Source: Candidatus Kuenenia stuttgartensis
Lineage (GTDB): Bacteria; Planctomycetota; Planctomycetia; Planctomycetales; Planctomycetaceae
Reading direction: 5' to 3'
Length of the DNA: 51,927 bases
NCBI GenBank assembly: GCA_945904015.1
Contig: CAMDPK010000027.1
Coordinates: 1 to 51,927, forward strand
Position 1 is the stretch's first letter, and every line of letters starts with the position of its first letter. A program made the translations under genes and the position numbers. The notes under the pieces were generated by a model that was given only the letters and a program-made list of their open reading frames with translations, did no database searches and was not told the origin of the DNA. Shown in pieces: positions 476 through 47,500 of the stretch.

Positions 476-1783
476 ATGAAGCTCAAGCTCCTCACTTGCT
501 GTTTGCTCCTGACGATTCTTCGGAGCACTCTGGCCGAGGACGTTGGTTATCAACCGTCCGTCACCGTTCGCGAATCGACTCGGCTGGATTGGGTTTTCGC
601 GGCTGCCAACCAGAGCTTGACCAATCCACCGGCCGAATGGTTGGAGGGATACGACTCGACCAAGCAGCGGTACGAATTGTTTGTGCCCGCAGCGGCCAAA
701 GCGACGGCTCCGAAAACGAAGACAAAAGGGAAAGCGAAGAATGGCGAGCCGGCCGACGCGGGTTTGCCGCTTGTGCTGTTCATCTCGGCGGGAGATCAAC
801 CGACCGGATGGGGCCAACTTCAAACTGTCTGCCAGCAGCGCGGGATCGCCTTCGCGAGTCCCTTCGGAGCCGGCAACAATACGTCGATGCCGAAGCGCAT
901 TCGTATTGTGCTGGATGTGTTGGACGACCTGCGACGGCAACATCGCATCGACGCGGATCGGACGTATCTCGCGGGTTTCTCTGGTGGCGGTCGAGTTGCC
1001 TGTGGCATCACGTTCGCGCTGCCTGAACTCTTTGGCGGCGTGATCCCGGTCTGCGCGGGAGGCGATCTGCGCGACGAGCCGTGGTTGCGGCATCGCGTCA
1101 TCGATCGGCTGAGCGTCGCGATGATCACCGGCACGGGCGACTTCAATCGGGGCGAAGTCGAACGCTTTCGCGGGCCGATGCTCACCGACTTCGGTGTGCG
1201 GACGAAAGTCACGGTTGTTGAGAAGCTCGGCCACGGCATTCCCGATGCCAAGACGTTTGCGGATGTGATCGAGTGGCTCGATGCCGGCGCGGTGGATCGA
1301 CGGAAGCTGGCGGCCAGTCATCCCGCCAGCCGTATCGGGTCGGAAGCGACACCGACTCGCGAGGCGTGGGCGAAGTCGCTGCTGGCCGAAGGGCAGTCGC
1401 GACTCAAAGAACCGAAGACGCTGTATTCCGGTCTGATGCAGTTGCAGGGCGTGATGCAGCGTTGGCCGGATCTCAAAGCCGCCGACGAGGCGAAACGGAT
1501 TTTGCTCGACTACGAAGCTCGCCAGGAAAAGCCGTGGGAGGAAGACGACATCGACGAGCAACGCCGCTTCTTAATCGCTCGCGCTCGGGCCTTGGATGCG
1601 TATGCTTCCGGTGAGTTGCCGCCGCAATACGCCAACCAGCGCAAGGACATGCTGGAGGCGGCCATCAATCTGTGGATGCTTGTGATCCAAGACGGCCAAG
1701 ATGACAAAGCCGTCGATGACGGTCAGCGACGCTTGCCAAAGTTGACGGCGATGCTGGCCTCCGATGGCGATCAGGCAAAGTAG
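476..1783 (+). CDS. Secreted alpha/beta-hydrolase-like (esterase/PHB-depolymerase-like) protein
   Basis: This 435-residue protein has a signal peptide (MKLKLLTCCLLLTILRSTLA) followed by an alpha/beta hydrolase core. The nucleophile elbow is GFSGGGR near residue 170, and a GHG segment near residue 253 fits the catalytic histidine region. The core resembles predicted esterases of the LpqC/PHB-depolymerase type; the substrate is unknown. About 150 C-terminal residues after the hydrolase core are helical and charged, and I do not recognise them. An in-frame ATG lies upstream at 443, overlapping the pyc end, but 476 is preferred because it begins directly with the signal peptide. The TAG stop lies inside the left end of repeat C1 (GTAGACC), so the natural C-terminus has probably been reset by the repeat. 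Confidence 0.7.
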   Translation: MKLKLLTCCLLLTILRSTLAEDVGYQPSVTVRESTRLDWVFAAANQSLTNPPAEWLEGYDSTKQRYELFVPAAAKATAPKTKTKGKAKNGEPADAGLPLVLFISAGDQPTGWGQLQTVCQQRGIAFASPFGAGNNTSMPKRIRIVLDVLDDLRRQHRIDADRTYLAGFSGGGRVACGITFALPELFGGVIPVCAGGDLRDEPWLRHRVIDRLSVAMITGTGDFNRGEVERFRGPMLTDFGVRTKVTVVEKLGHGIPDAKTFADVIEWLDAGAVDRRKLAASHPASRIGSEATPTREAWAKSLLAEGQSRLKEPKTLYSGLMQLQGVMQRWPDLKAADEAKRILLDYEARQEKPWEEDDIDEQRRFLIARARALDAYASGELPPQYANQRKDMLEAAINLWMLVIQDGQDDKAVDDGQRRLPKLTAMLASDGDQAK

Positions 1784-1845
1784 ACCGGACGCCTACGTCC
1801 GGTCGCAACTCGCGAAATGCGACTGGACGTGGGCGTCCGGTCTAC
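1780..1845. repeat. Nested palindromic element C1 (GTAG-headed REP doublet)
   Basis: Two inverted arms lie between convergent genes. The left arm begins GTAGACCGGACG and the right arm ends CGTCCGGTCTAC. Each arm is itself a hairpin: ACCGGACG-CCTA-CGTCCGGT on the left and ACTGGACG-TGGG-CGTCCGGT on the right. The element contains the TAG stop of the upstream esterase gene. A second copy of the family (C2) is inside the coiled-coil gene at 47231-47283. No T-tract follows it, so it is not a standard intrinsic terminator. Confidence 0.85.
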
Positions 1846-1854
1846 AACTCGACG

Positions 1855-2481
1855 CTACCGGCGTTCCTTTTGATACAGCTCGGTGAGCAGGTCTTCGACC
1901 GATTTGAACTTCTTGCCAGCGGCCATCACCGTGTCGATCTTCTGCCGAGCATCCGGAGCCGAATGGCCGAGGCTGACGAGAGCCTCGTAGGCTTCCTGCA
2001 CGACCGATTGCTGACCGGCTTGTTCCGGCGGCAAATCGCGAGCGATCATCAACGCGAACTTGGCCATCTTGCGTCGCAGCTTGGCGACAATTCGCTCGGC
2101 GGTCGCGGGGCCAATGCCGGGGAGCGCGGTCAGCTCTTTGATGTCTTGCTCTTCGATGGCCACGGCGACTTCGCGCACGGGGCGAACCATCGCGCGCAGC
2201 GCCGTCTTCACGCCGACGCCGTCCACCGAGCAGATGCTCTCGAAGAATTCCTTTTCCGCATCGTTGAGAAATCCAATCAGCCGCGGCGTCAGTCGGCCAC
2301 CTTTTTGCGGATTGCCTTCGAGGTACTCGATCGTCCGCAGGCTGACCTCTTGATCGAGGCTCCCTTGAAGCTGCCGCCGCACGAACTCCGGCACGAAGAC
2401 TTCGTACTCGAACGCTCCAACCGACAGCGTCGCTTCGCTGCCTGTCAGATGGACCAATCGGCCGGTGATGCGGGTGATCAA
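1855..2481 (-). CDS. ruvA: Holliday junction branch migration protein RuvA
   Basis: With the TTG start at 2481 the product is 208 residues, the usual RuvA length, and begins [12 protein letters not shown], the standard RuvA N-terminus. An N-terminal OB fold is followed by the helix-hairpin-helix region ([14 protein letters not shown], then [16 protein letters not shown]) and a small C-terminal domain III that contacts RuvB. RuvA binds four-way junctions in the cytoplasm and loads the RuvB motor. AGAGGA sits about 6 bases upstream of the TTG. A longer in-frame ATG reading starting at 2565 adds 28 residues, but that extension translates repeat E1 and should be discarded. ruvB and ruvC are not in the window. 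Confidence 0.93.
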
Positions 2482-2496
2482 GGGAGTCCTCTCAAC

Positions 2497-2615
2497 GTAG
2501 CCCTCTCGCTCCGCGAGAGGATTGCCGAGCGGTGCTTCGGCGTCGTTTGCGCGATCAGCCGTCAATCAACGTTGACTCCGCGTCCGGCTGTCCTCTCGCG
2601 GAGCGAGAGGGCTAC
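2497..2615. repeat. Nested palindromic element E1 (GTAG-headed)
   Basis: The left arm starts GTAGCCCTCTCGC and the right arm ends GCGAGAGGGCTAC. Each arm is a hairpin: CCTCTCGC-TCC-GCGAGAGG on the left and CCTCTCGC-GGA-GCGAGAGG on the right, with about 70 bp of spacer. It covers the junction between ruvA and the DUF1573 gene. It encodes the last residues of the DUF1573 protein (SSPLAPRED) and, on the same strand, the false N-terminal extension of RuvA. Confidence 0.85.
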
Positions 2616-3423
2616 TTTTCACAGCATGGTCGTCGCTGGGCGACGGGCCTTCAACCTGTAGCGGCACACGCAGCTCGGCGTATTCCGAGATGTTCGTTCG
2701 GACGATGATCGAGCCGTCGTGTTTTCCCGGTGGGACATCGGTGATCGTGACGAGAACTTTTTGCTGACGCTGGCCGATCTCATCGAACTGAGCTTCGCCG
2801 ATCACAACCTCGACCCATTTCAAAGAGCAGGTCGCTTCCAGAAGTTCGAGACGTGCGAGCGGCCGATCGTCCGGCGCGGCACGGAAGTCAGTGATCGTGA
2901 TGTCGCGCGTCGTTGGCTGGTTGTTGAACTGATAGACGATCAGTGACCGCGGTCGAATTTCGACACGCTCTTCGGGCAGCGAGATCTTGAAGCGGACTTC
3001 CGCCTCGCGCGGCTGCCCGTCGTCGTAAAGGATTTGGCAGGTGTATTCGTGCGGGCCGGGCTTTTCGTTGGCGGCACGGACTCGCAAAAAGAACTCGCCC
3101 CCTTCACCGGGAGCGAACTCTTTCCGTTCAAGGCGCGGATTCAAACAACCGCAACTCGGCTTGAGTTCTGAGATCTTCAGCGGCTTCGATCCGACATTCC
3201 GAAAGGCGTACCGCGCGAGATATTCTGATCGCGGAGGTGGCGCGCCGAGATTCACGAGGTACTGCTCGAACGCAAGGCTGTCTCGCGCGACGCCGTCCGC
3301 AACCGGCCGAGCCTTCACGCCGCTGGCATGCACGACCAGCGACAACGCAAATGGCAACAACGCCGCCGTCCACAACGCTCGCGGCCACCAATCCGCCTTG
3401 GCGGATCGAACTGACGCATCCAT
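2566..3423 (-). CDS. DUF1573 domain protein, membrane-anchored
   Basis: This 285-residue protein has one N-terminal hydrophobic segment (about residues 15-33) acting as a signal or anchor. The extracytoplasmic part matches the DUF1573 pattern: a beta-sandwich with FRNVGSKPLKISELKPSCGC near residues 75-95. DUF1573 proteins are ASH/MSP-like Ig-fold proteins of the cell envelope with no assigned activity. A second Ig-like segment follows (IVYQFNNQPTTRDITITDF), as is usual in planctomycete members. The final 17 or so residues are encoded by repeat E1 and are probably not part of the ancestral protein. The gene is upstream of ruvA on the same strand, separated only by the repeat. Confidence 0.78.
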   Translation of the reverse strand: MDASVRSAKADWWPRALWTAALLPFALSLVVHASGVKARPVADGVARDSLAFEQYLVNLGAPPPRSEYLARYAFRNVGSKPLKISELKPSCGCLNPRLERKEFAPGEGGEFFLRVRAANEKPGPHEYTCQILYDDGQPREAEVRFKISLPEERVEIRPRSLIVYQFNNQPTTRDITITDFRAAPDDRPLARLELLEATCSLKWVEVVIGEAQFDEIGQRQQKVLVTITDVPPGKHDGSIIVRTNISEYAELRVPLQVEGPSPSDDHAVKSSPLAPREDSRTRSQR

Positions 3424-3439
3424 GCGCGAAGCCTCCCAA

Positions 3440-3498
3440 CGTGGGGCAGGTTTTCAACCTGCCCGGAACCTAATGGCAGGTTGAAAACCTGCCCCACG
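3440..3498. repeat. Nested palindromic element A1, perfect 24-bp arms
   Basis: Two perfect 24-bp inverted arms are separated by 11 bp. Within each arm there is a hairpin, GGCAGGTT-TTC-AACCTGCC on the left and GGCAGGTT-GAA-AACCTGCC on the right. It lies between the SGNH hydrolase gene and the DUF1573 gene, both on the minus strand. The family recurs at 21440-21496, 46234-46323 and, as one arm, 47194-47216. Confidence 0.9.
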
Positions 3499-3573
3499 GG
3501 CTTGTAGCACGGTTCCGCAAATTGAGACAAGCTGTGTGCCGCCCATCCGCCGCCGCTCGAAAGAGCGACCGAA

Positions 3574-4815
3574 TCACCGCTGCTGAGCCAGCCACTTGGC
3601 CAGCAAGTCCTCCGCCGAAGCGGCATCCCCGACGGCGCGATCGACGAGGCTCAAGTGCTGTGCTCGGACCAACGGTCGGACCAAGTCGTCGCGCGATGCG
3701 GGCGCACCGGCAGCCGCGACGGACGGATGCACGACGAAGCAATCCCATTCCGCGTGGCCGAAGCTCAGCGACCAGTTCATCACCCACGAGTACGACTTCA
3801 CGAATTGTTCGTCGCTGTCGGCCGTCGCCGAACGCGGGACGGCGAGAACGACCAGGTCCGGCTTCATCGCTCGCACGGTTTGCTGAGCGGCTATTTCTAG
3901 TTGGGCGAGCGTCTTGCCCTCCGTCGTCCATGCCGTGACTTCGACAACGGCATTCGGATGCTGCCGCTTGAGCGCCGGCCCGATCAGCGTGTCGAACGGC
4001 GGCATCGCGAGTACTCGGATCGGCTTCGACTTCTTCACCAAGTCGAGCGTCTTGGCCAGGACCGGCGACGGTGGCTCGACGGCCTTCAACGAAGCCGATT
4101 TTCCGGTGATCGTGTGGCAGAGTTCCTCGGCCATCAATTTGTGGCCGTCCATGTTCGGATGGATTTCATCGCTGAGCGTCAGCCGCCAGCCCCAAGCGTC
4201 TTTCGTCCGCTGTGCATCGCCGGCGCGGTACTGATCGCACACCGCCAGCTTCAAATCGCGAGCCGTTGCACGAATGACTTCGCAGTAGCGTTCCAACTTC
4301 TCGGTTGGCCGGCCGCCCGTGTTGATCACTGCGTTCGGCGTACAGAGCACGACATCCGCCTTGGCCTCGCGGCAGCGAGCGACAATCGTTTCGAGGTTCT
4401 TGCGAAATTGGTCTTCAGGGATGCGTGTCATGTCGTTCAGCCCGAAGCTGACCGTGACGAGATCCGGCTTCTTGCTGAGCACATCGCGGTCGAGCCTGTC
4501 TAAACCGTTCTGCGTCGTGTGTCCGCTGATGCCGGCGTTGATCACCGTCACGTTGGCCTTCGGGACTGCCAGCTTGATTGCGATCTCCAGCATCTCCGGA
4601 TACGCCCGCCGTCCGCCGGTGTGGTAGTAGACCCCGGTGACACTGTCGCCGAGACAGACAATCTTCACCGGCTTCTCGCCGAATGAGAGCAGCGGCTTTG
4701 CAGAGTCGTCCGAGTTCGCGACCCGCAAAAGCACGAGTGTCGCCAGGACGAAGCATGCCACCGCGCTGGGCCACACGCGCTGCAATCGGCAATGCGAGAA
4801 CATCATCATCGTCAT
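3574..4815 (-). CDS. SGNH/GDSL-family hydrolase, exported
   Basis: This 413-residue protein has an N-terminal hydrophobic export segment (residues 12-31) and an SGNH hydrolase fold. Block I is LGDSVTG with the nucleophile Ser58, block II includes the glycine in NAGISGHT, block III is GLND with Asn127, and block V is SDEIHP with Asp216 and His219. All four catalytic landmarks are present, so an active esterase, lipase or carbohydrate deacetylase is expected outside the cytoplasm. The second half (about residues 240-413) looks like a repeated, degenerate SGNH-like domain (IRVLAMPPFDTLIGPALK, DLVVLAVPRSA) without a full set of catalytic residues. Several Met codons at the start (MTMMMF) leave the exact start open by a few residues. 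Confidence 0.82.
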   Translation of the reverse strand: MTMMMFSHCRLQRVWPSAVACFVLATLVLLRVANSDDSAKPLLSFGEKPVKIVCLGDSVTGVYYHTGGRRAYPEMLEIAIKLAVPKANVTVINAGISGHTTQNGLDRLDRDVLSKKPDLVTVSFGLNDMTRIPEDQFRKNLETIVARCREAKADVVLCTPNAVINTGGRPTEKLERYCEVIRATARDLKLAVCDQYRAGDAQRTKDAWGWRLTLSDEIHPNMDGHKLMAEELCHTITGKSASLKAVEPPSPVLAKTLDLVKKSKPIRVLAMPPFDTLIGPALKRQHPNAVVEVTAWTTEGKTLAQLEIAAQQTVRAMKPDLVVLAVPRSATADSDEQFVKSYSWVMNWSLSFGHAEWDCFVVHPSVAAAGAPASRDDLVRPLVRAQHLSLVDRAVGDAASAEDLLAKWLAQQR

Positions 4816-4958
4816 GGTTTCACTCCCTGCTGCTGAGACTGCGAAGCGGACCCGTCTGTTATGGACGACCAGCAGCCACTTCTAATCCGAACATTCGCAA
4901 CGGACCAGCGACGCACGGCATGGCGGCACGGCTGACAAATGGTCGTATTTTTGTGGTT

Positions 4959-6839: not shown

Positions 6840-7043
6840 TCTAAATCTCCCCGACGACCCCGAAGAAAACGAAAGACGGAACGGCGCGAATCGCGGCTGC
6901 CCAATTCAGGTGGAATTCGCCAATGGTATCAATGTACGTTGCAGCGGGCAGCCGTTGTTGTTCGCCAGTCACGAACCCAGGCGACGCTCCCGATGGTCAC
7001 TTGCCCTGGGCTGGCGTATTGCTGCCCCGTCGGGGCGGAACCA

Positions 7044-9095: not shown

Positions 9096-9169
9096 TCGAT
9101 GTCTCCTGGAATTCGTCGGGACACTTCACCTCACGCAGCCAATGGCTGATGAATCCAGGTAAGGTGCCG

Positions 9170-10660
9170 TCAAGAGGGATCGGCTCCGACGCCTTCTCGC
9201 GGCGAGGCTCGAAGTTCGAGAGCTTTGCGGCGGTCGGATTCGGCAAGCTTTTCCTTGCCGAGTTGCAGGTACGCCTCGGAACGCATGGCGAAGGCGTCGG
9301 CGTCCGTCGGATTGAGTTCGATCGCGGCGGTGAAATCGGTGACGGCGGAGTTGTGATCTCCCAGCCGCCAATGCACTTCGCCGCGCGCACGCAGACAGAC
9401 GGGACACTTCGGATCGAGCCGTACTGCCACGTCGTAGTCGGCTAACGCTCGCGGCAGATCGCCGGTGTCGAGGTACAACCCGGCGCGGCCGTTGTACGCC
9501 TCGTGGTTGTCGGGGTCGATCTCCAGAGCGCGGTTGAAGTCGAGCAGCGCGAGGTCGTGGCGCTTCATGGCTCGCCAGGTGTCTCCGCGGTTTCGGTAGG
9601 CGATGACCATGCTCGGTTCCAACTGGATTGCCTGCGAGTAGTCGTCACACGCCTTGTCGAACTCACCTTTTTCAAACCGGATGTTGCCGCGATTGTGCCA
9701 CGCTCCGGCCAGCGTCTTGTCGAGTTGCAACGCCATGTCGTAGTCGGCCAAGGCCTTGTCTGTCTGGCTGAGCTCATCGAAGACATTGCCGCGGCGATAG
9801 AACAGATCACCCTCGTCCGGATCCATGTCGATCGCGGTGTTGTAGTCAGCGAGAGCCTTGTCGTGTTCCCCCTTGCGGAGCCAAGCGTCGCCGCGCGAAG
9901 AGAATGCTCGACGATTGTCCGGTTCGCGTTCGAGCGACTCATCGAAGTCCGCGATGGCCTCATCCAGCTTGCCGGAGTTCAAGTAGGCCAACCCACGGTT
10001 GAAGAGAATCAGCGGATCGTTTTCCGATAGCTCCAAAGCGCGGTTGTAGTCTTCGAGGGCATTCTCCAACTCGCCCAGCTCATCCCAACAATTGCCACGG
10101 TCCATCACAGCGGGAACGTATTCGGGGTCGAGATCCAGCGCTCGCGTGAAGTCCTCGATCGCTTTCTGATAATCCTGCTGAGCCTCCCAGACCAAACCCC
10201 GGTCGTAAAACAAATCGGGGTTGTCGGGGGCGAGGTCGAGAGCCTGCTCGTAGTCTTCGAGAGCCTCAGTCCATTTTTGCTGATCAGAGTAGGCTCCGCC
10301 GCGCAGCAGCAGAGCTTCGGAATCGAACGGATCGAGGTGCAGCACTTCGGTCAGGTCGTCGGCGGCCCGTTCCGGCTCGCCGATCAGCGTGAAGACGCGA
10401 GCTCGGTTGAAAAAGTATGCCGACGCGGTCGGATTGAGGTCGATGGCGTTCGTGAAGTCTTCGATCGCTCGTTCGGAGACGCCGAGCTTGTCCCAGACCA
10501 GACCGCGATCGTTGAAGTAGTCGGGATCCTGCGGTTCGAGCTGGATCGCGATATTGAATTCGCGCAGAGCGTCCCGGAATCGCCCTTTTTCGAACAGGCG
10601 ATTCGCTCGATCGTAGTGCCGTTCCGCTTTGCTCACGGTGTCCTCGCTGGGAGTCGTCAC
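9170..10660 (-). CDS. Tetratricopeptide repeat (TPR) protein
   Basis: This 496-residue protein is built almost entirely of 34-residue TPR units, about 14 in tandem from residue 6 to 480. Typical unit spellings are ALEDYEQALDLAPDNPDLFYDRG and ALADYNTAIDMDPDEGDLFYRRG. There is no signal peptide or membrane segment, so it should be a cytoplasmic protein-interaction scaffold. The N-terminus uses a GTG start at 10660. No clear Shine-Dalgarno is visible, so the start is not certain. The C-terminal 15 residues are outside the repeats. The partner is unknown, and the neighbours give no hint. Confidence 0.83.
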   Translation of the reverse strand: MTTPSEDTVSKAERHYDRANRLFEKGRFRDALREFNIAIQLEPQDPDYFNDRGLVWDKLGVSERAIEDFTNAIDLNPTASAYFFNRARVFTLIGEPERAADDLTEVLHLDPFDSEALLLRGGAYSDQQKWTEALEDYEQALDLAPDNPDLFYDRGLVWEAQQDYQKAIEDFTRALDLDPEYVPAVMDRGNCWDELGELENALEDYNRALELSENDPLILFNRGLAYLNSGKLDEAIADFDESLEREPDNRRAFSSRGDAWLRKGEHDKALADYNTAIDMDPDEGDLFYRRGNVFDELSQTDKALADYDMALQLDKTLAGAWHNRGNIRFEKGEFDKACDDYSQAIQLEPSMVIAYRNRGDTWRAMKRHDLALLDFNRALEIDPDNHEAYNGRAGLYLDTGDLPRALADYDVAVRLDPKCPVCLRARGEVHWRLGDHNSAVTDFTAAIELNPTDADAFAMRSEAYLQLGKEKLAESDRRKALELRASPREGVGADPS

Positions 10661-11048
10661 CGAGACATGTCTCGCCCGTCGTGCCCTGACCAGTCGCCAG
10701 CAAGTATCGCATCGAACTACCGCGCCGCAAGCACAATTTTTGCGGACAGGGTATCCCGCTATGTCTCAGCCAGAGGGCGAAAACTACTCGGTCGATCAAG
10801 GGGACGCAACCAAGGGGGTCTAAGGCATTGCAAATTGCAAATTGCAAATTGCAAATTGAGAATTGAAGCCAGCCAGCGGGGTCATTGCCGCCCATTGTTC
10901 GTCGATTTGCAACTTTCAATTTTCAATTTGCAATTTGCAATCTGCATTGATCGCTGGCTCACTCCATTGATTGCGAACCCGCCAAACCAACGGTATCGTC
11001 ACACCCCGTTTCGACCGTCTCTTTCCACTTTGCAGAGGGCTTTCGCAC
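10661..11048. other. 388-bp divergent intergenic region holding an inverted pair of heptad-repeat tracts
   Basis: This region separates the TPR gene (minus) from the oxidoreductase gene (plus) and so must hold both promoters. It contains element H1 (10825-10946). No convincing protein-coding frame or RNA gene is visible; the short frames seen here translate the repeat (FAICNLQFAICN-type peptides). Confidence 0.6.
10825..10946. repeat. Element H1: inverted pair of 7-bp tandem-repeat tracts (GCAAATT)n
   Basis: The left tract (10825-10866) has about four perfect GCAAATT units plus degenerate ones. The right tract (10904-10946) has the inverse units (TTGCAAT, TTTCAAT). About 38 bp of unique sequence lies between them. 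The two tracts could form a long AT-rich hairpin. A second copy of the arrangement is at 24535-24702. Confidence 0.85.
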
Positions 11049-12533: not shown

Positions 12534-12540
12534 CTGATTC

Positions 12541-12612
12541 GGAAGATGGGCACTCTTGTCCGTCCGTCCGATGTCGAACGAACGCATGGACGGGCAAGAG
12601 TGCCCATCCTCC
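12541..12612. repeat. Nested palindromic element B1
   Basis: The left arm reads GATGGGCACTCTTGTCC and the right arm GGGCAAGAGTGCCCATCC. The right arm keeps the hairpin GGGCA-AGAG-TGCCC, while the left has one mismatch (GTCC for GCCC). It belongs to the same family as B2 and B3. It follows the oxidoreductase stop by 7 bp and, together with the terminator, had been read as a false N-terminus of the next gene. Confidence 0.82.
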
Positions 12613-12618
12613 AATTCA

Positions 12619-12652
12619 ACAGGGGTACGGCACGCCGTACCCCCTGTTTTTT
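12619..12652 (+). terminator. Intrinsic terminator, GC-rich palindrome followed by T6
   Basis: AGGGGTACGG pairs with CCGTACCCCCT around a CACG loop, with one unpaired C, and TTTTTT follows directly. It lies 3' of the Gfo/Idh gene and 27 bp before the next start, so it should end the oxidoreductase transcript. The GGGGTACGGC palindrome itself may be another repeat family. Confidence 0.72.
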
Positions 12653-12678
12653 CCACGGTATCGAATGAGGCGAAAGTC

Positions 12679-14010: not shown

Positions 14011-14018
14011 ATTTCTCA

Positions 14019-14077
14019 GTAGCCACACTCGCCAGAGCGTGGGCTGCGGCCACCCACGTTCTGGCGAACGCGGCTAC
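14019..14077. repeat. Nested palindromic element G (GTAG-headed)
   Basis: The ends are GTAGCC and GGCTAC. The left arm forms CCAC-a-CTC-GCCA-GAG-c-GTGG, and the right arm forms CC-a-CGTTC-TGGC-GAACG-c-GG. The two arm loops (GCCA and TGGC) are complementary, while the stems differ by changes that mostly stay paired. It sits between the LRR lipoprotein gene and panB. Confidence 0.75.
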
Positions 14078-14082
14078 CGCAT

Positions 14083-14117
14083 CGGAGGCTCGCCCTCGTT
14101 GACGCTTCGGGTTACTT
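14083..14117. repeat. Single-arm repeat J upstream of panB
   Basis: Read on the minus strand, this segment gives GTAACCCGAAGCGTCAACG followed by AGGGCGAGCCTCCG. It resembles a common planctomycete intergenic repeat whose translation gives NPKRQRG and SVNEGEP peptides. Only one arm is present. It ends 7 bp before the panB start codon, so it overlaps the translation initiation region. Confidence 0.55.
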
Positions 14118-14124
14118 TGTTCGC

Positions 14125-15316: not shown

Positions 15317-17296
15317 ATGTTTGAAGCACCGTCCCGCCCAAGCGGCGTCCGGCATCTGATCATCTTGCTGCTGACGCTGATGTCGGTGCTGCTTTACTTG
15401 GACCGCTTCTGCGTCTCGTTCGCCGGCGACTACATCAAGGAAGACCTTGGCCTGTCGCAGACGCAGATGAGCTGGTTCCTGAGCCTCTTCTTTTGGTCGT
15501 ATGCACTGTCTCAAGTTCCGGCCGGCTGGCTGGCGGACCGATTTGGCGCGCGGCTGATGCTGTCGATTTACGTCGTTGCGTGGTCGCTGTTCACGGCTCA
15601 GATGGGATTGGCCGCCGGCTTCACGATGCTGATGTTCGCGAGACTCATGTGCGGCATCACTCAAGCCGGAGCGTACCCGACCGCCGGTGGAGTCATCAGT
15701 CGCTGGGTGCCGCTCTCCAAACGAGCGACCGCTAGTGCCTGGGTCGGTCTCGGCGGCCGCATGGGCGGAGCAATGGCCCCTGTCCTGACCGCTTTCTTGA
15801 TGGTCGTCTTCGTGCCGGTTGGTACATCGGTCGAATTCACAGAGACCGACATGATGTCCGCTCCAAAATTGGCCGCTCGCCTGACTCCGATTTCCGAGAC
15901 GCTCGAACAGGCTATTGAAATCGCGGCAAAGGAAAACTCGCAGAAGCAATCCTCTGTCGAGCTCGCCAAAACTCTGAAGAAGAAACTCACCTCTGAAGCG
16001 GCTGCGGCGGGGAAACATTTATCGAAGTTCGCCAATCAGGAGATGACTTCGGTTGTCGCCGGAGACGTTTCACTCGCGGCCGAAGAACTGCGGTGTGCTG
16101 AGCTTCAAGCGGCTGTCGAAGACATTCGCAAATCCTCTGGTGTCAGTGCTGGTTCAACGACTCGCGAGGCACCAAATCCGAGTTCCACAAGTACACCGCG
16201 ATCCGCGCCAATCGCCGCCGCGGAGCTTTCCGAGTTTCTGCGAACCGCGCTGAACGGGTTGCTGAATCGTCGCGACTTGTTCGATGATGCCGCGTTTGCG
16301 AAAGCCAATTTGCCGCGTGAGGCACTGGGGTACGCCGAACGGTCAAAAGGGAGCGATCCGCTGACCGTCGAGCAACAACGACGATTCAATCGACTGTTGA
16401 TCGAAGCGGCCTTTCCAGGGGAAATTCGCAAACTCTACGGTCGAGGTTGGCGGCCGGTGATGATTGCCTATGGCTTGTCGGGTGTCCTGATCGCGTTGGC
16501 GATTTGGTGGATGTTTCGCGACCGGCCGGAATTGCATCCCCGGGTCAACGACGCCGAACGCGAACTCATCACGACCGGACGATTGGCCACGGCGGCGGCG
16601 GCAAACAGCAAGGCGGGACGTTTGCCGATCCGGCCGTTGTTCACCAATTTCAGTTTGTGGTGCAACTGCGCGAATCAGATTGGAACGAACATCGGCTGGG
16701 TGTTTTTGGTAACCTGGCTGTCGCGATATTTCATCGAGATGCACAGCGTTCCGATTTTGGAACGGAGCGTCTTGGTGATGATGCCGAACTTGATCGGCCT
16801 TTGCGGCGGATTCCTCGGAGGCCGCTTGGTCGATTGGCTGCTGCCGCGCATCGGTTTGAAATGGAGCCGCAGCTTGCCGCCGATCATCACACGGTTCGTT
16901 GCGGCTGGCGGCTACGGAATGTGTCTGTACTTCGCGGCTCAGCCAGCGGGATCGGCGTTGAATTCACCGTACGCGTTCACGGCGGCGTTTTGCTTGATCT
17001 ATTTTTCGGTGGACCTCGGCCAGTCGGCGTTCTGGGCTTACGCTCAAGATGCCGGCGGAAAATATGTCGGCTCGGTCCTCGGCTGGGGCAACATGTGGGG
17101 CAACCTCGGAGCCGCATTCGGGCCGCTGCTCTACAACCACCTGCTCGGCGAAAACCCGACGGTGGCCGAGTGGAACAATCTTTTCTGGCTGGGGCTGATC
17201 GCGTTTGTGTTTGCGGGTATCGCGACATTCGGCCTGGATGCCTCGAAACCGGTGTTCGCGGAAGAGACGACTCTGCCGGCGAGCGGAGGGTGTTAA
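15317..17296 (+). CDS. MFS transporter with large extra domain between TM5 and TM6
   Basis: This 659-residue protein looks like the sugar-phosphate/anion:cation symporter branch of the major facilitator superfamily. The first half shows DRFCVSFAGDYIKEDLGLSQ after TM1 and GWLADRFGARL between TM2 and TM3. The usual TM6 block is displaced to residue 378 (GWRPVMIAYGLSG, then FRDRPELHP). Between TM5 and TM6, residues 169-377 form a hydrophilic, helical, Ser/Ala-rich insertion that topology predicts to be periplasmic. Normal family length is 400-450, so the excess equals this insertion. The substrate is unknown. The chosen Met gives a short N-tail before TM1; upstream in-frame Mets read through the terminator. 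The final residues ASGGC and the stop are supplied by repeat D1. Confidence 0.83.
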   Translation: MFEAPSRPSGVRHLIILLLTLMSVLLYLDRFCVSFAGDYIKEDLGLSQTQMSWFLSLFFWSYALSQVPAGWLADRFGARLMLSIYVVAWSLFTAQMGLAAGFTMLMFARLMCGITQAGAYPTAGGVISRWVPLSKRATASAWVGLGGRMGGAMAPVLTAFLMVVFVPVGTSVEFTETDMMSAPKLAARLTPISETLEQAIEIAAKENSQKQSSVELAKTLKKKLTSEAAAAGKHLSKFANQEMTSVVAGDVSLAAEELRCAELQAAVEDIRKSSGVSAGSTTREAPNPSSTSTPRSAPIAAAELSEFLRTALNGLLNRRDLFDDAAFAKANLPREALGYAERSKGSDPLTVEQQRRFNRLLIEAAFPGEIRKLYGRGWRPVMIAYGLSGVLIALAIWWMFRDRPELHPRVNDAERELITTGRLATAAAANSKAGRLPIRPLFTNFSLWCNCANQIGTNIGWVFLVTWLSRYFIEMHSVPILERSVLVMMPNLIGLCGGFLGGRLVDWLLPRIGLKWSRSLPPIITRFVAAGGYGMCLYFAAQPAGSALNSPYAFTAAFCLIYFSVDLGQSAFWAYAQDAGGKYVGSVLGWGNMWGNLGAAFGPLLYNHLLGENPTVAEWNNLFWLGLIAFVFAGIATFGLDASKPVFAEETTLPASGGC

Positions 17297-17356
17297 CCCT
17301 TCGAGTGACTGACATAGGGCGAGAATAACCTCGGAGGGTTAACACCCTCCGCTCGC
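17279..17356. repeat. Nested palindromic element D1 between convergent genes
   Basis: The left arm is GCGAGCGGAGGGTGTTAACC and the right arm is its inverse. The right-arm hairpin is GGAGGGT-TAAC-ACCCTCC; the left has one mismatch (CCCTTC for CCCTCC). About 23 bp separates the arms. Both convergent genes end inside it, each with the residues ASGGC and TAA. A second copy is at 39857-39929. Confidence 0.88.
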
Positions 17357-17983
17357 CGATGGGCTCGTGAGCTTCTGTTGCCAGAATGCGTAGTCTTCCG
17401 GCGTGTCGAGATCGGCGAGGACCGATTCGTGGTCGGTCGGCCATTCGGTGACGAGGCCCGGTGACGAGCGGAGCAGCGTGTTGACTCCGACGTCTTTGGG
17501 AAGTGCTTCGATCCGCGTTGCCAGCGACCAGCGCAAGAATGTCGGGTGTCCGCGCCGCAGGCCGAGCGTCGGCAGCAGTGCTTGGCAATCGCCTTGCGAC
17601 CAGCGAGTCAGCAAGCCGTTGAGGACTTCCGATTCGATCAGCGGATGATCGGCGGGAATCAACAGCCAGCCGTCATCGTCGGTCGGAGCGAATCGCTGGC
17701 GGATGGCTCGCAGGCCGATCTCGATGCTGTCTCGCATTTCTGCCGGTTCATGATCGGGAATGACCGCGACGACGGACGTGCGTTGCACGGCTACTTGCAG
17801 TGCGTGGTCGTCGGGTCGAGTGACGATCAAAACGGCAGCGATGTCCAGCCGGGTCAGCGTGCCGATGAGGTGCTCGATGACCGTTGTGCCCTGCCACGGC
17901 AGCAGTAGCTTCGACGTCCCCATCCGACGGCTGCGACCGGCAGCGGGAATTAGAGCGAACAATCGGCGGGGAATGTCGGCCAT
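17339..17983 (-). CDS. MobA/MocA-like nucleotidyltransferase
   Basis: This 214-residue GT-A-fold nucleotidyltransferase has the N-terminal LIPAAGRSRRMGTSKLLLPW signature (G-rich loop plus Lys) and the metal-binding region LIPADHPLI. It resembles MobA/MocA-type molybdenum cofactor guanylyl- or cytidylyltransferases, closest to the MocA (CTP) type. No molybdenum cofactor genes lie nearby, so the substrate is open. A longer frame extends to 18385 but is antisense to the release-factor-like gene. The start at 17983 fits the family, and 18013 (MISIRPPD...) is the alternative. The last residues (SASGGC) come from repeat D1. It is divergent from the GGQ gene with only 66 bp between starts. Confidence 0.78.
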   Translation of the reverse strand: MADIPRRLFALIPAAGRSRRMGTSKLLLPWQGTTVIEHLIGTLTRLDIAAVLIVTRPDDHALQVAVQRTSVVAVIPDHEPAEMRDSIEIGLRAIRQRFAPTDDDGWLLIPADHPLIESEVLNGLLTRWSQGDCQALLPTLGLRRGHPTFLRWSLATRIEALPKDVGVNTLLRSSPGLVTEWPTDHESVLADLDTPEDYAFWQQKLTSPSASGGC

Positions 17984-24524: not shown

Positions 24525-24534
24525 GGAAAGAAGG

Positions 24535-24702
24535 GAATTGCAAATTGAAAGTTGCAAATTGCAAATTGCAAATTGGTCGGACAGGAACAATGTCCGCAAT
24601 CAGTCGGCGTCAGACGAAAGCTCATTGGATGTCGTCCGTTAGCACCCCCCGCTACCTTGCCTTCAACTTGCAATTTGCAATTTGCAATTTGCAATTTGCA
24701 AT
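24535..24702. repeat. Element H2: inverted pair of 7-bp tandem-repeat tracts
   Basis: The left tract (24535-24575) contains GCAAATT-type heptads, and the right tract (24665-24702) carries TTGCAAT heptads in the opposite sense. They flank about 90 bp of unique sequence. The layout matches H1 near 10.9 kb, and the spacer sequences are unrelated. It fills the galT-GH57 gap. Confidence 0.86.
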
Positions 24703-24732
24703 GCCCTGCCGCCCGGAAGAAGGGATGCTTCC

Positions 24733-33307: not shown

Positions 33308-33310
33308 CGG

Positions 33311-34829: not shown

Positions 34830-34859
34830 TCGCTGTGTTCCTCACGTCTCGACTGCGCG

Positions 34860-36794: not shown

Positions 36795-36890
36795 GACGTT
36801 CGTCCACTCCAGTTTGGGAACGATCGGAATAGAAGGTCGATTGCCCTCTTCGATGATCCACGAGAATGCTCTGGCTTTCCCAGAGAGAAG

Positions 36891-38398: not shown

Positions 38399-38422
38399 TG
38401 AATTCCCAGCAGGGACACCGAC

Positions 38423-39835: not shown

Positions 39836-39856
39836 GAGTGCTTTCCAATTGAAGAG

Positions 39857-39929
39857 GCGAGCGGAGGGTGTCAACCCTCCGAGTCATCCCCTCAATTTTT
39901 TTCTCGGCGGGTTAACACCCGCCGCTCAC
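39857..39929. repeat. Nested palindromic element D2 with compensated arm
   Basis: The left arm hairpin is GGAGGGT-GTCA-ACCCTCC, and the right arm hairpin is GGCGGGT-TAAC-ACCCGCC. The A-to-C change in the right arm is matched by a T-to-G change in the same arm, so each arm hairpin is intact while pairing between arms is weakened. It lies between two same-strand genes that act as a pair. Confidence 0.87.
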
Positions 39930-39940
39930 CATTGTGTGAC

Positions 39941-42352: not shown

Positions 42353-42397
42353 GAACGGTCCTTCTTGATGATCTCGGAGAATTCTCACCGGACCAGC

Positions 42398-44227
42398 TTA
42401 GAACGGCCAGACCAACGGGGCCAGTGCGACGGTCACGAGCATGTACAGCAGGTCGAGCGGAATGCCGATCCGCAGGTAGTCGCTGAAGCGATAGCCGCCC
42501 GGCCCCATGACCATCAAATTGCACTGATAGCCGGTCGGCGTCGCGTAGCCGGCGGACGAAGCGACCATGATCGACATGATGAACGGCATCGGATTCACGC
42601 CGAGTTTGTCAGCCGCCGCGAGCGCGATCGGGAACACGAGCACCGCCGCCGCGTTGTTCGTGATGAGCTCCGTCAGAATCATCGTCGCGAGGTACACCGC
42701 TGCCAGCACCGCCCACGGTCCACCACCAAAGGCTTGAGCGGCACCCGTCAGGTTGTCCGCCAGGAGTTTCGCGGCTCCAGACATTTCCAGCGCACGCCCG
42801 ATACCGAACGAGGCACCGATGCTGATAAGCACGTCCATCTCCATGCTCTCGCGAGCCTCTCGAGCGGTGCAGCACTTCGTCAGGATCATCAGTCCGCCCG
42901 CCAGCGTTGCCGCCGTCAGGATGTCAAACCACTCGGCGAGATTCACGAGCACCATCACCAGCAGAATCAGAATCGCAATCCAAGCTTTCTCGTGCCGCAG
43001 CGGTGCGGAATTTTGCACGCTGCTGACCAGAAAGAAGTCGCTGCGATTTCGCATCCGGGTCTCGAAGGATTGATGAGCCTCCAGCAGCAACGTGTCGCCG
43101 GAACGCAGCACAATGTCGCCGATCTTCGCGTTGATCCGCTCGCCGCTGCGAGCCACCGCCAGCACGGCTGCGTCGTAACGGCTGCGAAACTGGCCGTCGC
43201 GAATCGTCTTGCCGACGATCGGGCAACGATCCGAAACCACCGCCTCTAGCAAGCATCGTTGCGTCCGCGGATCGTTCAATTTGAAGACTTGATTCGTCGC
43301 CGGCTGCAAACCGCGAATCTTCTGCAAATCAACGACCGACTCGACGATGCCGACAAAAATCAGCCGGTCGTTTTCTTGGAGCCGCTCGGTCGGACCGACG
43401 GCCGGCAGGATGTCCTCGCCCCGTTCAATCTCCGCCAGAAACAGTCCCGACAAATGACGCAGTCCTGCCTGTTCAATCGTCTGACCGACCATCGGACCGC
43501 CGGGCTGCACGATCATCTCGACCGTGTATTGCCGAGGATCGTCGCTCAAGCTGATCGCCGGCTTGCGATCGGGCAGCAGCCATTTGCTCGTGGCGATCAC
43601 GAACGCCAAGCCGATCACCGCCGCCGGCAGGCCGATCCAGGTGATGTCGAACATCTCCAATTGAGGAAACGCCTTGGGCAGTCTGCCATCGCCGATCGCC
43701 TTCACGATCAACCCGGCAATCACGATGTTCGTGCTGGTGCCGATCTGCGAGCAACAGCCGCCGAAGACCGACGCGTAGCTCAGTGGCAAGAACAATTTCG
43801 ACGGACTGATTTTGCTTTTCTTGCAGAGGTCATCGACCACCGGCATGAACATCGCCACGCAGGGCGTATTGTTCAGAAAAGCGCTCAACCCCATCACCGG
43901 AAACAACAGCCGAGTCTGAGCCGTCATCACGGTCTGCGGCTGTCCGATGATTGGTTTCGTGACCATCGCCATCGCGCCAGTTTGCACCAAGCCCGCAACG
44001 ACCACGAACAACACCGCCACCGTCAGCAGCGCGGAATTTCCGAAGCCTGCCACCGCTTGATCGACCGACGGCAGCAGCTTCCCGGCCGAGAACGGACTGA
44101 CCGCCAGGATCAAAGCCAAGCACCCCATCGTGATCATGTCGGCCGCGAAGTTCCGCGCCAGGCCATAGACCATCACGACAACGACAGCGAGCGAAAACCA
44201 CAGTTCCCAAGGATGTCCAAACAGCAT
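42398..44227 (-). CDS. SLC13-family permease with two TrkA-C (RCK_C) domains
   Basis: This 609-residue protein has about 11 hydrophobic helices in two blocks separated by a soluble middle (about 215-410). The first block contains SAFLNNTPCVAMFMPVV, and the second ELITNNAAAVLVFPIALAAA and SSAGYATPTGYQCN, the paired SLC13/DASS signatures. The middle holds two TrkA-C/RCK_C domains (DRLIFVGIVESVVDL, DTLLLEAHQS), which usually sense ligand. The substrate may be sulfate, a dicarboxylate, or another anion. The start at 44227 gives a Met just before the first helix; a TTG five codons upstream is possible. The next gene on the strand is 45 bp away, but it belongs to a different functional pair. Confidence 0.85.
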   Translation of the reverse strand: MLFGHPWELWFSLAVVVVMVYGLARNFAADMITMGCLALILAVSPFSAGKLLPSVDQAVAGFGNSALLTVAVLFVVVAGLVQTGAMAMVTKPIIGQPQTVMTAQTRLLFPVMGLSAFLNNTPCVAMFMPVVDDLCKKSKISPSKLFLPLSYASVFGGCCSQIGTSTNIVIAGLIVKAIGDGRLPKAFPQLEMFDITWIGLPAAVIGLAFVIATSKWLLPDRKPAISLSDDPRQYTVEMIVQPGGPMVGQTIEQAGLRHLSGLFLAEIERGEDILPAVGPTERLQENDRLIFVGIVESVVDLQKIRGLQPATNQVFKLNDPRTQRCLLEAVVSDRCPIVGKTIRDGQFRSRYDAAVLAVARSGERINAKIGDIVLRSGDTLLLEAHQSFETRMRNRSDFFLVSSVQNSAPLRHEKAWIAILILLVMVLVNLAEWFDILTAATLAGGLMILTKCCTAREARESMEMDVLISIGASFGIGRALEMSGAAKLLADNLTGAAQAFGGGPWAVLAAVYLATMILTELITNNAAAVLVFPIALAAADKLGVNPMPFIMSIMVASSAGYATPTGYQCNLMVMGPGGYRFSDYLRIGIPLDLLYMLVTVALAPLVWPF

Positions 44228-44505
44228 CGGCAAACAACTCAAAGCGAGGGGGCGACAGATTTCCGCGACACGATCAAAGCGGAGGGAATGTAACCGATGC
44301 CGTGGTCGCGATGGTACGCAGCAGCGAACTCATTCACCTGGAGTGCTGCGGCTTGACGCAGCCCTCCATCCGACTTTTTGCACGCGTCCAGTCGTCGCAA
44401 ACTCTCAACCTTCGCACGTCGACTGTCACGACGTCATCACGAAGCATTCGCGAGTCGCATCCCGCGATGAATGGAGGGCTGCGTCAAGCCGCAGCACTCC
44501 AAGGA
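44228..44505. other. Intergenic region holding element I
   Basis: This 278-bp gap between the coiled-coil gene stop and the SLC13 start contains the 30-bp inverted repeat (element I) and its 101-bp core. No protein-coding frame or RNA gene was recognised in it; the SLC13 promoter should be within 44228-44339. Confidence 0.6.
44340..44500. repeat. Element I: perfect 30-bp inverted repeat around a 101-bp core, GGAG-headed
   Basis: The left arm 44340-44369 begins GGAGTGCTGCGGCTTGACGC and the right arm 44471-44500 is its exact inverse, ending CTCC. Each arm has an internal hairpin, GCTGCG-6 nt-CGCAGC. The core differs from anything else in the window. It ends 5 bp from the stop of the coiled-coil gene. 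Confidence 0.92.
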
Positions 44506-47500
44506 TCACTCCTGTTCGGCCAGCGATTCGTAGTAGCGGCGGATGTGCTCGGAGTATTTCGGCAGCGTTTTGTCGTGCGGCAGGTTGAGCATTTTCTCGC
44601 GCAGTGCTGGGGGTAGATGTCCCCAGACCGCCTCGCGAAGTTGACGTTGGCGGCGGAGTTCGGCGAGGGCATCGCTGCCGGTCTGCTCGCGGTCGGATGA
44701 GTTGCGGGCCTGAGCGGAATCCCGTCCCGTCGGTTTGCCCCCCGTGCCGTCGGTCGTTGATGATTTTTCGTTCGGAGTCTTGTCCGACATCGGTCCTGGC
44801 TGGCCCGTGCGCGCGACGGACTGCTGCTGAGCCGCTCGTTGTTGCCAGCGTTTCAACAGCGCGTCGAGCGATTCAACTGCCGTCTGCTGCATTGCCTGTG
44901 TCGGCTTGCCGGTCTCGGCCGCTCGGAGTTTTTCGAAGGATTCCTGCATCGCCGACAGCGCCGTCTCGCGCGGCGCGGTTTCGTCGGGAGTTGTCGGGGG
45001 CGGATCTTTCATCGGCTCCGCTGCCGGAACTTGCTCCAACAGGCGGGACGTCGCCTCACGCACGGACTGCTGGTCATCGGCAAGCTGACGCAGTTCCGAC
45101 TCGCGACGCTTTGTCTCGTCGTCATTCGGCGGAGTCTTCGGCTCACGAGCCTCGGCCGATCGGGTGCGGTCACCGACGTCGGATTGCAAGTCGCGGAGCA
45201 GTTTCAATTGAGCGACGGGGGGCACCGGCTCCTCCGGCTGCGCGTTCTGCTTCTGACCTTCCGGCGGCTGTTGAGCGGTCTCGCCTTTCGGCGGTTGAAC
45301 GGGCGGCGGAGCGAGAGCGTCCGCCAGTGATTGCAACGCACGGAGCGCGGACTGTTCGCGGCGAGCGGTCTCCTCGTCAAGTTGCTTCTCTCGCAGTCGT
45401 GATGCGGCGGCGGCGAGATCGCTCGTCGCGCGGTCGAGCGTCAGCCGCACCGCTTCGATGTCGGTCAGCGACTTCGACAGCTCTTCTGTGTTGACGGCAA
45501 GTTCCTGCTCCGCCTCGCCGAGATTCAGCGCGGCCTTCGACAACGGCCGAGTCCATTTGCCGGTCTTCTGTTGCTCGGCCGACAACCGCTGCGTCTCGTC
45601 CACGACCGTCTTTTGCCGAGCCACCAATTCGCGCACCGCTTCAGCCAGAGCGTTCGTTTTCTCGGCGAGTTCCTGTTGCTGAGCCGCTCGGCGAGCGGCC
45701 GCGAGTTCGCGACCCGCCTGTTCCAGATCGTCGAGTGCCGTTTGCTCTTCGTCCGCCCCGCGCGCGAGTTGTTTGTCAGCCAATTGCAATTCCGCTTGCT
45801 GCATGTGCCGGCTCGCGCGACGCAGCGCTTCGCGCGACTCGTCCGCGCGAGTTTCTTTCAACTTCGATGCCAATTCCTCCGCCGACTTTTTCGCTTCCCC
45901 TTGTCGATCGCGCAGAGACTTCGCCTGCTCGGCGAGTTCCTCCGGCGTGAGCGACGCCCCCTTCTCCGCCGCCGCGCGAGTTTCTTCGAGCAACTTCCGC
46001 TGCTGCTGAGTCAAAGTATCGAGTTGCCCTTCAAGCTCCTTCAACTCGCGAACGGCTGCATCGGAGTTTGCCGTCGGAGTCTGCGCCAGCTTGTCGGCGA
46101 GAGCCTGCAATTCCTCGGCAAGCTGCTGCTGAGTGCGACCCGCCTGACCGAGATTGTTCTCGGCAACCTCGCGCGCTGCCTCCCGCGCCTTCGCCGCGAG
46201 CGCACGCTGGTCGAGTTCGGCGACGACCTCCTCGTGGGGCACGTTTTCAACGTGCCCGCCCGTCTTCTTTTCGACCGACGATTCTTCCGCTGCTGGGCCG
46301 GGCACGTTGGAAACGTGCCCCACAGCGAGTCGCTGCCGCAGTTGTTCGATCCGTTCGGCCTGACGCGACTGTCGATCAGCGAGCTTCGCGACGTCCGCTT
46401 GCTGCTGACTCGGCAACTGCGACGCCGATTTTCCGAGCGTCTGCGGTGCCAGTTCCGACGTGTCTCGATTGAGCGTCTCTTGCGTTTTCGCGAGTTCGCC
46501 GACTTCGCGGGCCAAGTCGCGCCGGTCTCGCCACTGAGTCAAATCGCGGATCAACTCGGTCAACGTCGTCAGCACGTCCGCCTGCCGCGCGACAATTTCC
46601 GGAAACGATTCCGCCAAGCCGACGAGCGGTTGAGTCCCGGCACTCTCCTTCACGGCTCGACCCAACAGGCTTTCCAACGTCGGTAGCGTTTGACGGGCCA
46701 AACCCTCGACCGCCGCAGCGATGTGCGTGAGCCGTTCGCGCGTCACCGAATCGTTCAACTGGTTGTCTTCGAGTTGCGACAAAAGTTCTCGCGAGCGTGA
46801 AATCACACCGTCGCCTCGGCCAGTCAGCCGCAAGCCGATCTGCCGCTGATCCAACTCAACCCGCTTGAGCGAGTCCCGATCCTGCGGTCGAAATTCCCCA
46901 CCCTTCTCGGCTTGAACACGCAGCAAGTCCGTTTGATCTTTCGCCTGCGACTGCTTCGTGGCGAGCGTTTCCAAATCGTGCAACAGCAGGTCGAGCCGAT
47001 GCGCGATCTCCGAAAGTTTCTCTTCCGGTGAGACGACGGTCAGCGTCCGCGTCACACTCCGGCCGACACGCGGCTCGCCGATGTCGCAGAGATCTGATGC
47101 AACGAATCGCAGCGCAATCCGATCGCCGACCTTCGGGTTCAGCTTGTTCACCTGCCAAGCCAGCCGCACGATTGCTTCACGCGCCCCGTCCTCGTGGGGC
47201 AGGTTTTCAACCTGCCAGTTGTCATCGTTCGTAGCCCGGACGCCTACGTCCGGGGTGAGTTCGGACGTAGGCGTCCGAACTACGGAATACTCCAATCGCA
47301 CATCGCGCAAACGACGCTCATCCCGCCCGGTCGCCGCCAGCCGAACCGTCGCGTTTGCCGTCACGAGCTGATCGGTCGCTGGCTCTTCGAGCGACACGAC
47401 CGGCGGCGGGTCGGCGATGCCGACAACGTCCAATCGCAATGCCGACAAGTTTTGAAACTCGTCCCGATCCGTCAGCGCTAATTGCTGAGTCACCGATCCG

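What the first reader, a model, noticed from the sequence alone, without database searches (positions are those of the whole stretch)
1780..47283. Many unrelated palindrome families share one REPIN-like architecture with GTAG/GGAG heads
Elements C1, C2, E1, F, G and B3 begin GTAG and end CTAC; B2 and I begin GGAG and end CTCC. A and D have other ends but the same build: two inverted arms, each a small hairpin with a 3- to 6-nt loop. GTAG or GGAG followed by a hairpin is the recognition layout established for REP sequences and their RAYT (TnpA-REP, Y1) transposases. Finding at least nine sequence-distinct families in 52 kb is unusual; known genomes usually hold a few REP families. It suggests a large set of RAYT-like enzymes elsewhere in this genome, or one enzyme with relaxed hairpin specificity.
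Basis: partly seen in the sequence, partly recalled or inferred. Interest (0 to 1): 0.78.

Follow-up and report, generated by a model that had tools for sequence, protein, structure and literature searches.

The report
Many REPIN families, each with its transposase
The palindromes are real hairpin pairs (REPINs) of many families in a planctomycete genome; in its genus most of the families sit beside their own transposase gene, so this is a known kind of element in unusual variety, with some uncommon end signals and hints that one family can take another's place.

Summary
The window holds 13 inverted hairpin pairs of seven families (A, B, C, D, E, H, J) and two single arms. A dyad finder there and 0 in 30 shuffles, and 140 in 1.24 Mb of this genome against 0 shuffled.

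They are REPINs. In this genome families A and B flank RAYT genes, and three class-3-like RAYTs have three other palindromes. RAYTs of relatives are flanked by C, E, F, G, I, M, Q and S6, by D on one side, and by H-like palindromes. RAYT and REP distances correlate (Mantel r=0.64, p=0.0001, N=18 chosen pairs). So: one enzyme per family rather than one relaxed enzyme. But only two GTAG-type RAYTs were found in this assembly, one interrupted by another REPIN; most families are orphans here. J and R have no RAYT in the loci scanned.

Less usual: GGAG feet on both sides of RAYTs, GTAC feet, the number of families, and orthologous sites holding different families in different species, though enrichment of such swaps was not shown.

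The parts
1780..1845 (.). Family D REPIN, foot GTAG, CCGGACG-ccta-CGTCCGG
   Evidence: 168 exact-pattern arms in the genome; same family downstream of a partial RAYT at a contig end in congener G008:C1435
2497..2615 (.). Family B REPIN, foot GTAG, CCTCTCGC-tcc-GCGAGAGG
   Evidence: own RAYT on C5 has family B pairs on both sides
3441..3497 (.). Family A REPIN, foot GTGG, GGCAGGTT-ttc-AACCTGCC
   Evidence: 334 exact-pattern arms in the genome; own RAYT on C229 has A REPINs on both sides
12541..12612 (.). Family C pair, GGAG foot on the right arm, left arm degenerate (GGAA)
14019..14077 (.). Family E REPIN, foot GTAG, CCACACTC-gcca-GAGCGTGG
   Evidence: not called by the finder; E-type palindromes on both sides of a RAYT-like gene in congener G002:C280
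14093..14113 (-). Single S3 arm
   Evidence: own class-3-like RAYT on C69 has S3 on both sides
17278..17357 (.). Family H pair, GGCGAG-headed, GGAGGGT-gtta-ACCCTCC
   Evidence: H-like palindromes at class-3-like RAYTs G001:C83 and G007:C85 and in locus L198 of G004:C374
19088..19153 (.). Family C REPIN, foot GGAG
   Evidence: RAYT with GGAG-headed C on both sides in G001:C387
20194..20245 (.). Family C REPIN, foot GTAG
   Evidence: RAYT with GTAG-headed C on both sides at L231
21440..21496 (.). Family A REPIN; a family G pair stands in the orthologous gap of congener G009
39856..39930 (.). Family H pair, right arm with 4 mismatches
44339..44501 (.). Family J pair, GGAG...CTCC ends, 30-nt arms, no RAYT found
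   Evidence: family G pair at the same site in G006
46234..46323 (.). Family A (GGCACGTT subfamily) pair in frame inside the ORF 44506-48684
   Evidence: the orthologous site holds R, A or no known family in congeners
47194..47216 (+). Single family A arm in frame; recognisable in all nine orthologous sequences compared, with a compensating pair swap in some
47231..47283 (.). Family D pair in frame in the same ORF; congeners hold D, Q or A here
44506..48684 (-). Host ORF, 1392 aa, no Pfam match, with three in-frame REP elements

Best explanation
The palindromes are REPINs: pairs of REP hairpins facing head-outward, each arm a 4-nt foot (GTAG or GTGG; GGAG in a subfamily of C) followed by a hairpin of about 7-9 bp with a loop of 3-5 nt; family H is built alike but headed GGCGAG. 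Each family is most likely copied by its own single-strand DNA transposase (RAYT/TnpAREP, HUH-Y1), whose gene is flanked by that family. The genus holds a pool of many RAYT-REPIN pairs; each species carries REPINs of many families but only some of the RAYTs, so in this genome most families look orphaned. Shown: structure, copy number, compensating stem changes, RAYT flanking, RAYT-REP co-divergence, and sites with a REPIN in one species and a short interval without one in another. Inferred: cleavage at the foot and the ssDNA route (from published work on other TnpAREPs) and RAYT loss as the cause of the orphan state. J is unexplained.
For: 140 dyads vs 0 in one shuffle of all 61 stretches; same-family neighbours within 150 bp 90 heads-out, 7 heads-in, 2 tandem. 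Feet: A GTGG 85/85, B GTAG 34/36 (2 GTGG), D GTAG 41/42 (1 GTGG), E 19/19, F 23/23, G 15/15 GTAG, C 26 GTAG + 16 GGAG of 42 (which admits only G[TG][AG]G starts, without that limit, saw one CTAG in D of 33, one GTAC in G of 14 and one AAAG in C of 36). 142 two-sided stem changes, 138 Watson-Crick, 44.7 two-sided expected if independent (copies are related). RAYT link: hairpin-bearing repeat on both sides at 21 of 48 Y1 loci vs 1 of 600 random positions; named pairs. Mantel r=0.64, p=0.0001, N=18; one per family r=0.52, p=0.0003, n=13. Enzyme identity: invariant HxH, W, Y and N columns in 15 rows; own C229 protein 80.5 bits vs cut-off 80 for NF047646 REP-associated tyrosine transposase; best match in the PDB is 4er8 TnpArep. 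66 of 107 classified dyads intergenic vs 10 at random (33 unclassified dyads left out, 25 of them intergenic). Seven own dyads face 10-31 bp without a known family in a congener.
Against: For C, D, E, F, G, H, I, M, Q and S6 no cognate RAYT was found in this assembly (91.7% complete). Copy number follows the enzyme only in part: the genome with most arms holds the cognate RAYT for A (this one, 334) and F (G004, 167), but none was found for C (this one, 136), D (this one, 168) or G (G004, 189), and D is rare (8) in the one genome with a D RAYT, a fragmented assembly. Hairpins of orphan families are not clearly more broken (A 1.9%, B 4.2%; orphans C 2.9, D 2.1, E 5.9, F 1.0, G 4.4%). J and R have no RAYT. 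27 of 48 Y1 loci missed the two-sided hairpin criterion: fragments, loci cut by a contig end (8 of 48, one of which passed all the same), class-3-like loci with weak hairpins, IS200-like genes and others; one of the 21 that passed (L134) did so by a long direct repeat. S11 was seen only beside its own RAYT. No movement was watched.
Confidence: 0.9

Rival explanations
1. One or two RAYTs of relaxed hairpin specificity mobilise most families in this genome; the feet are shared and the stems drift.
For: Only two GTAG-type RAYTs were found here against about nine families with GTRG feet; orphan families D and F keep well-paired hairpins.
Against: In relatives RAYTs are flanked by their own distinct family, and RAYT and REP distances correlate.
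Confidence: 0.12
2. The hairpins are kept mainly as RNA structures (terminators, mRNA ends) or DNA binding sites, not as mobile elements.
For: 66 of 107 dyads intergenic; compensating stem changes, and 35 of 91 one-sided changes leave a G-T pair.
Against: RAYT flanking; REPIN versus short-interval sites between species; a pair inside a RAYT gene and in-frame pairs in a window ORF. A secondary RNA role is not excluded.
Confidence: 0.05
3. The orphan state is an assembly artefact: the cognate RAYTs lie in the unassembled part of this MAG.
For: 8 of 48 Y1 loci had a flank cut by a contig end; completeness here is 91.7%.
Against: Profile searches of this genome found no further GTAG-type fragment at E<=1 and no further class-3-like gene at E<=0.001; ten families would all have to fall in the missing part. 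Abundant REP classes without their RAYT, with the RAYT in related strains, are reported for pseudomonads and stenotrophomonads (PMC3686654, section 8 read).
Confidence: 0.25

Closest known systems
REPINs with RAYT/TnpAREP (Pseudomonas, Stenotrophomonas, E. coli)
   Same: Foot + hairpin arms in inverted pairs, RAYT flanked by its own family, several families per genome, orphan families, REP insertions inside RAYT genes (PMC3116915 search listing only; PMC2817692 passages; PMC3686654 passages and section 8; PMC6006769 passages and section 12)
   Different: GGAG and GTAC feet; by the text read, at most four RAYTs and 'several' REP classes per genome there, against sixteen palindrome families counted here, not all with GTRG feet
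GTAG super-family of Di Nocera et al. 2013 (PMC3733652; outline, sections 5 and 16, passages)
   Same: GTAG foot, subfamilies with complementary stem changes, heads-out dimers in most families, repeat-specific REPtrons, a planctomycete (R. baltica) with a 'plethora' of transposases and repeats, REPs inside genes
   Different: GGAG and GTAC do not occur in its main text (figures not held). How many families R. baltica has is not stated in the parts read, so 'unusual number' is a limited claim
Class 3 TnpAY1 (PMC6006769, sections 12 and 27)
   Same: Own C69, C111 and C76 proteins carry YVLEAQ, YTLEAQ and YVREAQ (Y....Q type) and have flanking repeats; the class is described mainly in Planctomycetes
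   Different: The CnGA foot was not tested; membership rests on motif and flanks
TIRYT genes with GGGGWSAS repeats (PMC3733652, section 16)
   Same: Own C39 has a GGGGACAGGTC-type inverted repeat on both sides
   Different: Not studied further; none of the window's elements is of this type

Membership tests
REPIN / REP (GT[AG]G type) | Palindrome preceded by GTAG or GTGG | tested here: met
   220 of 220 arms of A, B, D, E, F, G found by a search that admits G[TG][AG]G; C is 26 GTAG and 16 GGAG, so more than a third of C does not meet it. H and J do not meet it
REPIN / REP (GT[AG]G type) | Two arms in inverted, head-outward pairs | tested here: met
   90 heads-out, 7 heads-in, 2 tandem
REPIN / REP (GT[AG]G type) | High copy number, mostly intergenic | tested here: met
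   66 of 107 intergenic vs 10 at random; family A is an exception, 16 of 27 inside predicted genes (approximate gene caller)
REPIN / REP (GT[AG]G type) | Cognate RAYT gene flanked by the same family | tested here: met
   A and B in this genome; C, E-type, F, G, I, M, Q in related genomes; D on one side only; not met for J and R
RAYT / TnpAREP | HUH and catalytic Tyr motifs, RAYT-type domain | tested here: met
   only 1 of 10 proteins scanned passes the NF047646 cut-off (C229, 80.5 vs 80), five others match below it at E<=1e-5
RAYT / TnpAREP | Cleaves single-stranded REP at the foot | not testable with these tools
   needs biochemistry
Class 3 TnpAY1 | Y....Q motif and atypical flanking hairpins with CnGA foot | tested here: inconclusive
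   motif and flanking repeats seen; CnGA foot not tested

The most novel reading that the evidence does not exclude
In this genus REPIN positions behave as conserved slots whose content is exchanged: at the same point different species carry unrelated families (D, Q or A; A or R; A or G; J or G), at one in-frame site with the foot at the same alignment column and the reading frame kept, and a resident arm is re-written to another subfamily by paired changes. That would mean foot-guided cross-family replacement or gene conversion by RAYTs, with families competing for a fixed set of permitted sites.
Probability: 0.2. Interest if true: 0.75.

Novelty: new variant of a known kind. Interest (0 to 1): 0.5.

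Why it matters
One genus with a dozen or more RAYT-REPIN pairs, many present in a species without the enzyme, is a natural experiment on how a single-strand transposase reads its hairpin, how long REPINs persist after the enzyme is lost, and whether families compete for sites. GGAG and GTAC feet beside RAYTs are natural variants of a tetranucleotide whose changes abolished or re-aimed cleavage in enzymes tested so far (PMC8266576, passages).

Tried and rejected
Pfam PF01797 alone misses the family A RAYT. The idea that GGAG or GTAC feet go with Q95->E in the WQ motif: suggested by L133 (WE, GGAG) and L233, L234, L235, L252 (WE, GTAC), but L236 and L253 are WE with GTAG, L237 is WE with mixed feet and L238 is WQ with GGAG; rejected as a rule. 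The idea that REPINs land beside other REPINs: 4 different-family site pairs within 100 bp vs 11.5 at random (max 22); rejected. Enrichment of family swaps at orthologous gaps: a congener dyad in 3 of 23 gap comparisons with an own dyad vs 5 of 75 without, Fisher p=0.39; not shown (98 comparisons; the strict caller misses degraded pairs and the gene-internal sites are not in it). RAYT presence as predictor of copy number: mixed. RAYT for J or R: none in 193 loci scanned by pattern; R has one pair in the G001:C529 locus, roughly 900 bp from the gene and on one side. One search's covariation count read some hairpins on both strands and was replaced.
Full report
WHAT IS THERE. The window is contig C27 of an unnamed 7.43-Mb genome in 286 contigs. 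The window holds 13 hairpin pairs in seven families and two single arms. A dyad finder that knows nothing of families called 11 pairs in the window and none in 30 dinucleotide shuffles, and 140 in 61 stretches (1,238,458 bases) of this genome against none in one shuffle of all of them. Eight of the 61 stretches were chosen because they hold Y1 genes, so densities were taken from the other 53 (1,091,927 bases). Extrapolated arms per genome: A 347, C 218, D 184, S3 157, S6 136, S5 129, B 116, E 102, J 95, F 88, Q 61, H 48, R 41, G 34, I 34, M 14; S11 had none there and was seen only beside its RAYT. The shuffled control gave 0 for all 17 patterns (one shuffle). Whole-genome counts of other, exact patterns: A 334, D 168, C 136, F 60, G 31, reversed-pattern controls 0.

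ANATOMY. Same-family neighbours within 150 bp are 90 heads-out, 7 heads-in, 2 tandem. With foot and loop required, 262 arms of families A-G show 142 stem pairs changed on both sides, of which 138 are Watson-Crick, against 44.7 two-sided changes expected if the sides varied independently (the arms are related copies, so these are not independent events). The foot is GTGG in all A arms and GTAG in nearly all B, D, E, F, G arms; C has 26 GTAG and 16 GGAG (one search gives the counts without a foot requirement). Of 107 family-classified dyads 66 are intergenic by an approximate gene caller, against a mean of 10 (max 17 of 200 trials) at random; 33 unclassified dyads were left out. Family A is often inside genes (16 of 27).

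THE ENZYMES. PF01797 gives 8 hits in this genome; a profile of 15 RAYTs adds C229 and finds C5 again; a class-3-like profile adds C76. C229 has family A pairs on both sides, C5 family B pairs on both sides, C69 S3 on both sides and as its C-terminal tail, C76 S5 and C111 S11. C39 has a GGGGACAGGTC-type repeat on both sides, C32 and C92 a similar stretch upstream only. C42 and C249 look like IS200 transposases. In relatives: C at G001:C387 with GGAG feet on both sides, at L231 and L232 with GTAG feet; D at G008:C1435, downstream only, contig end upstream; E-type at G002:C280; F at G004:C147; G at G010:C27, and weaker at G007:C185; I at G006:C21 and G019:C512; M at G010:C110, Q at G004:C166, S6 at G010:C8, H-like at G001:C83 and G007:C85. 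GGAG arms also flank a RAYT in a Kiritimatiellae record, L238. Four related RAYTs (L233, L234, L235, L252) are flanked by hairpins whose foot reads GTAC when set beside GTAG families; its C can join the stem. Automatically, 21 of 48 Y1 loci have a hairpin-bearing repeat on both sides, against 1 of 600 random positions. RAYT and REP distances correlate: r=0.64, p=0.0001 for 18 pairs that I chose because the arm was clear; r=0.52, p=0.0003 for one per family, n=13. The profile's best match in the PDB is 4er8 TnpArep.

ORPHANS. In this assembly A, B (gene interrupted), S3, S5 and S11 have a cognate RAYT; C, D, E, F, G, H, I, M, Q and S6 do not, though relatives have them (H by H-like palindromes only); J and R have none in the loci scanned. 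Copy number follows the enzyme for A and F, not for C, D and G, and orphan hairpins are not clearly more broken. Nunvar et al. (PMC3686654, section 8 read) report abundant REP classes without their RAYT 'quite often', mostly with the RAYT in related strains or with a switched flanking REP, and propose RAYT loss or such a switch. Completeness of 91.7% leaves an assembly explanation open.

MOVEMENT. Of 140 own dyads, 26 had a congener interval to compare. Seven of them face 10-31 bp without a known family in at least one congener (for example a B pair opposite 10 bp in G003, an A pair opposite 26 bp in G006, H at window 17277 opposite 19 bp in G003). At four a different family is recognised by pattern: window 21440 A vs G in G009; 44339 J vs G in G006; 46234 A vs R in G004, G007 and G009 (A in G002 and G010, no known family in G003, G006, G011); 47231 D vs Q in G009 and A in G011. 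A fifth, a C pair at L059:12870, faces a J-like hairpin in G003 by eye. The sites 46234 and 47231 lie in frame in the ORF 44506-48684; at the latter D, Q and A elements begin at the same alignment column, and the neighbouring A arm shows compensating changes between species. The C5 RAYT gene is interrupted by a 148-bp family M pair, and by eye, against the relatives' proteins, some 35 residues of the gene are missing there. Against a slot-exchange reading: the strict gap test gave no enrichment, and different families are not clustered within the genome.

COMPARISON. In kind this is known: REP/REPIN elements with dedicated RAYTs, several per genome, also in planctomycetes (papers and parts read under Closest known systems). 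Not met in what I read: GGAG or GTAC feet beside RAYTs (searched four main texts: GGAG is absent from three and in PMC3686654 occurs, in the passages shown, inside REP sequences that begin GTRG; GTAC occurs only in PMC8266576, as mutated substrates), this many families in one genome, and orthologous sites with exchanged families. Searches for prior reports were made, in an open-access library without preprints; they cannot prove absence. PMC12306157 (passages only) has no mention of planctomycetes or RAYTs. PMC8266576 (passages) shows that foot and loop matter for TnpAREP activity and that changing the foot moved the cleavage site of one enzyme; cleavage here is inferred.

Noticed in passing
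10824-10949 and 24532-24707: Two intergenic inverted arrays of an AATTGCA heptamer, not REPINs; the G003 and G009 intervals opposite the second one do not match its pattern.
   Followed up: partly
L015 10339-10486 (own contig C5): The family B RAYT gene is interrupted by a 148-bp pair of family M (GGGTGGCACAG...CTGTGCCACCC); part of the gene seems to be missing there.
   Followed up: partly
L014 9441-10109 (own contig C69): A class-3-like RAYT ends in in-frame copies of its own S3 palindrome (TRSVSEGE repeats).
   Followed up: no
L016 18918-19836 (own contig C111): A class-3-like RAYT lies between two direct copies of about 84 bp that look like a gene end, as if its arrival had duplicated it.
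   Followed up: no
44506-48684: Family A elements read in frame as VGHVSNVPG / QVENLPH peptides; short matches to query residues 376-457, around one of them, turn up in other ORFs of the genus.
   Followed up: partly
L233, L234, L235, L252: RAYTs in other planctomycete records flanked by hairpins with a GTAC foot.
   Followed up: partly
9306-10459: Direct repeats spaced by multiples of 102 bp inside the ORF 9170-10660, the spacing of 34-residue repeats (TPR-like; name recalled, not tested).
   Followed up: no
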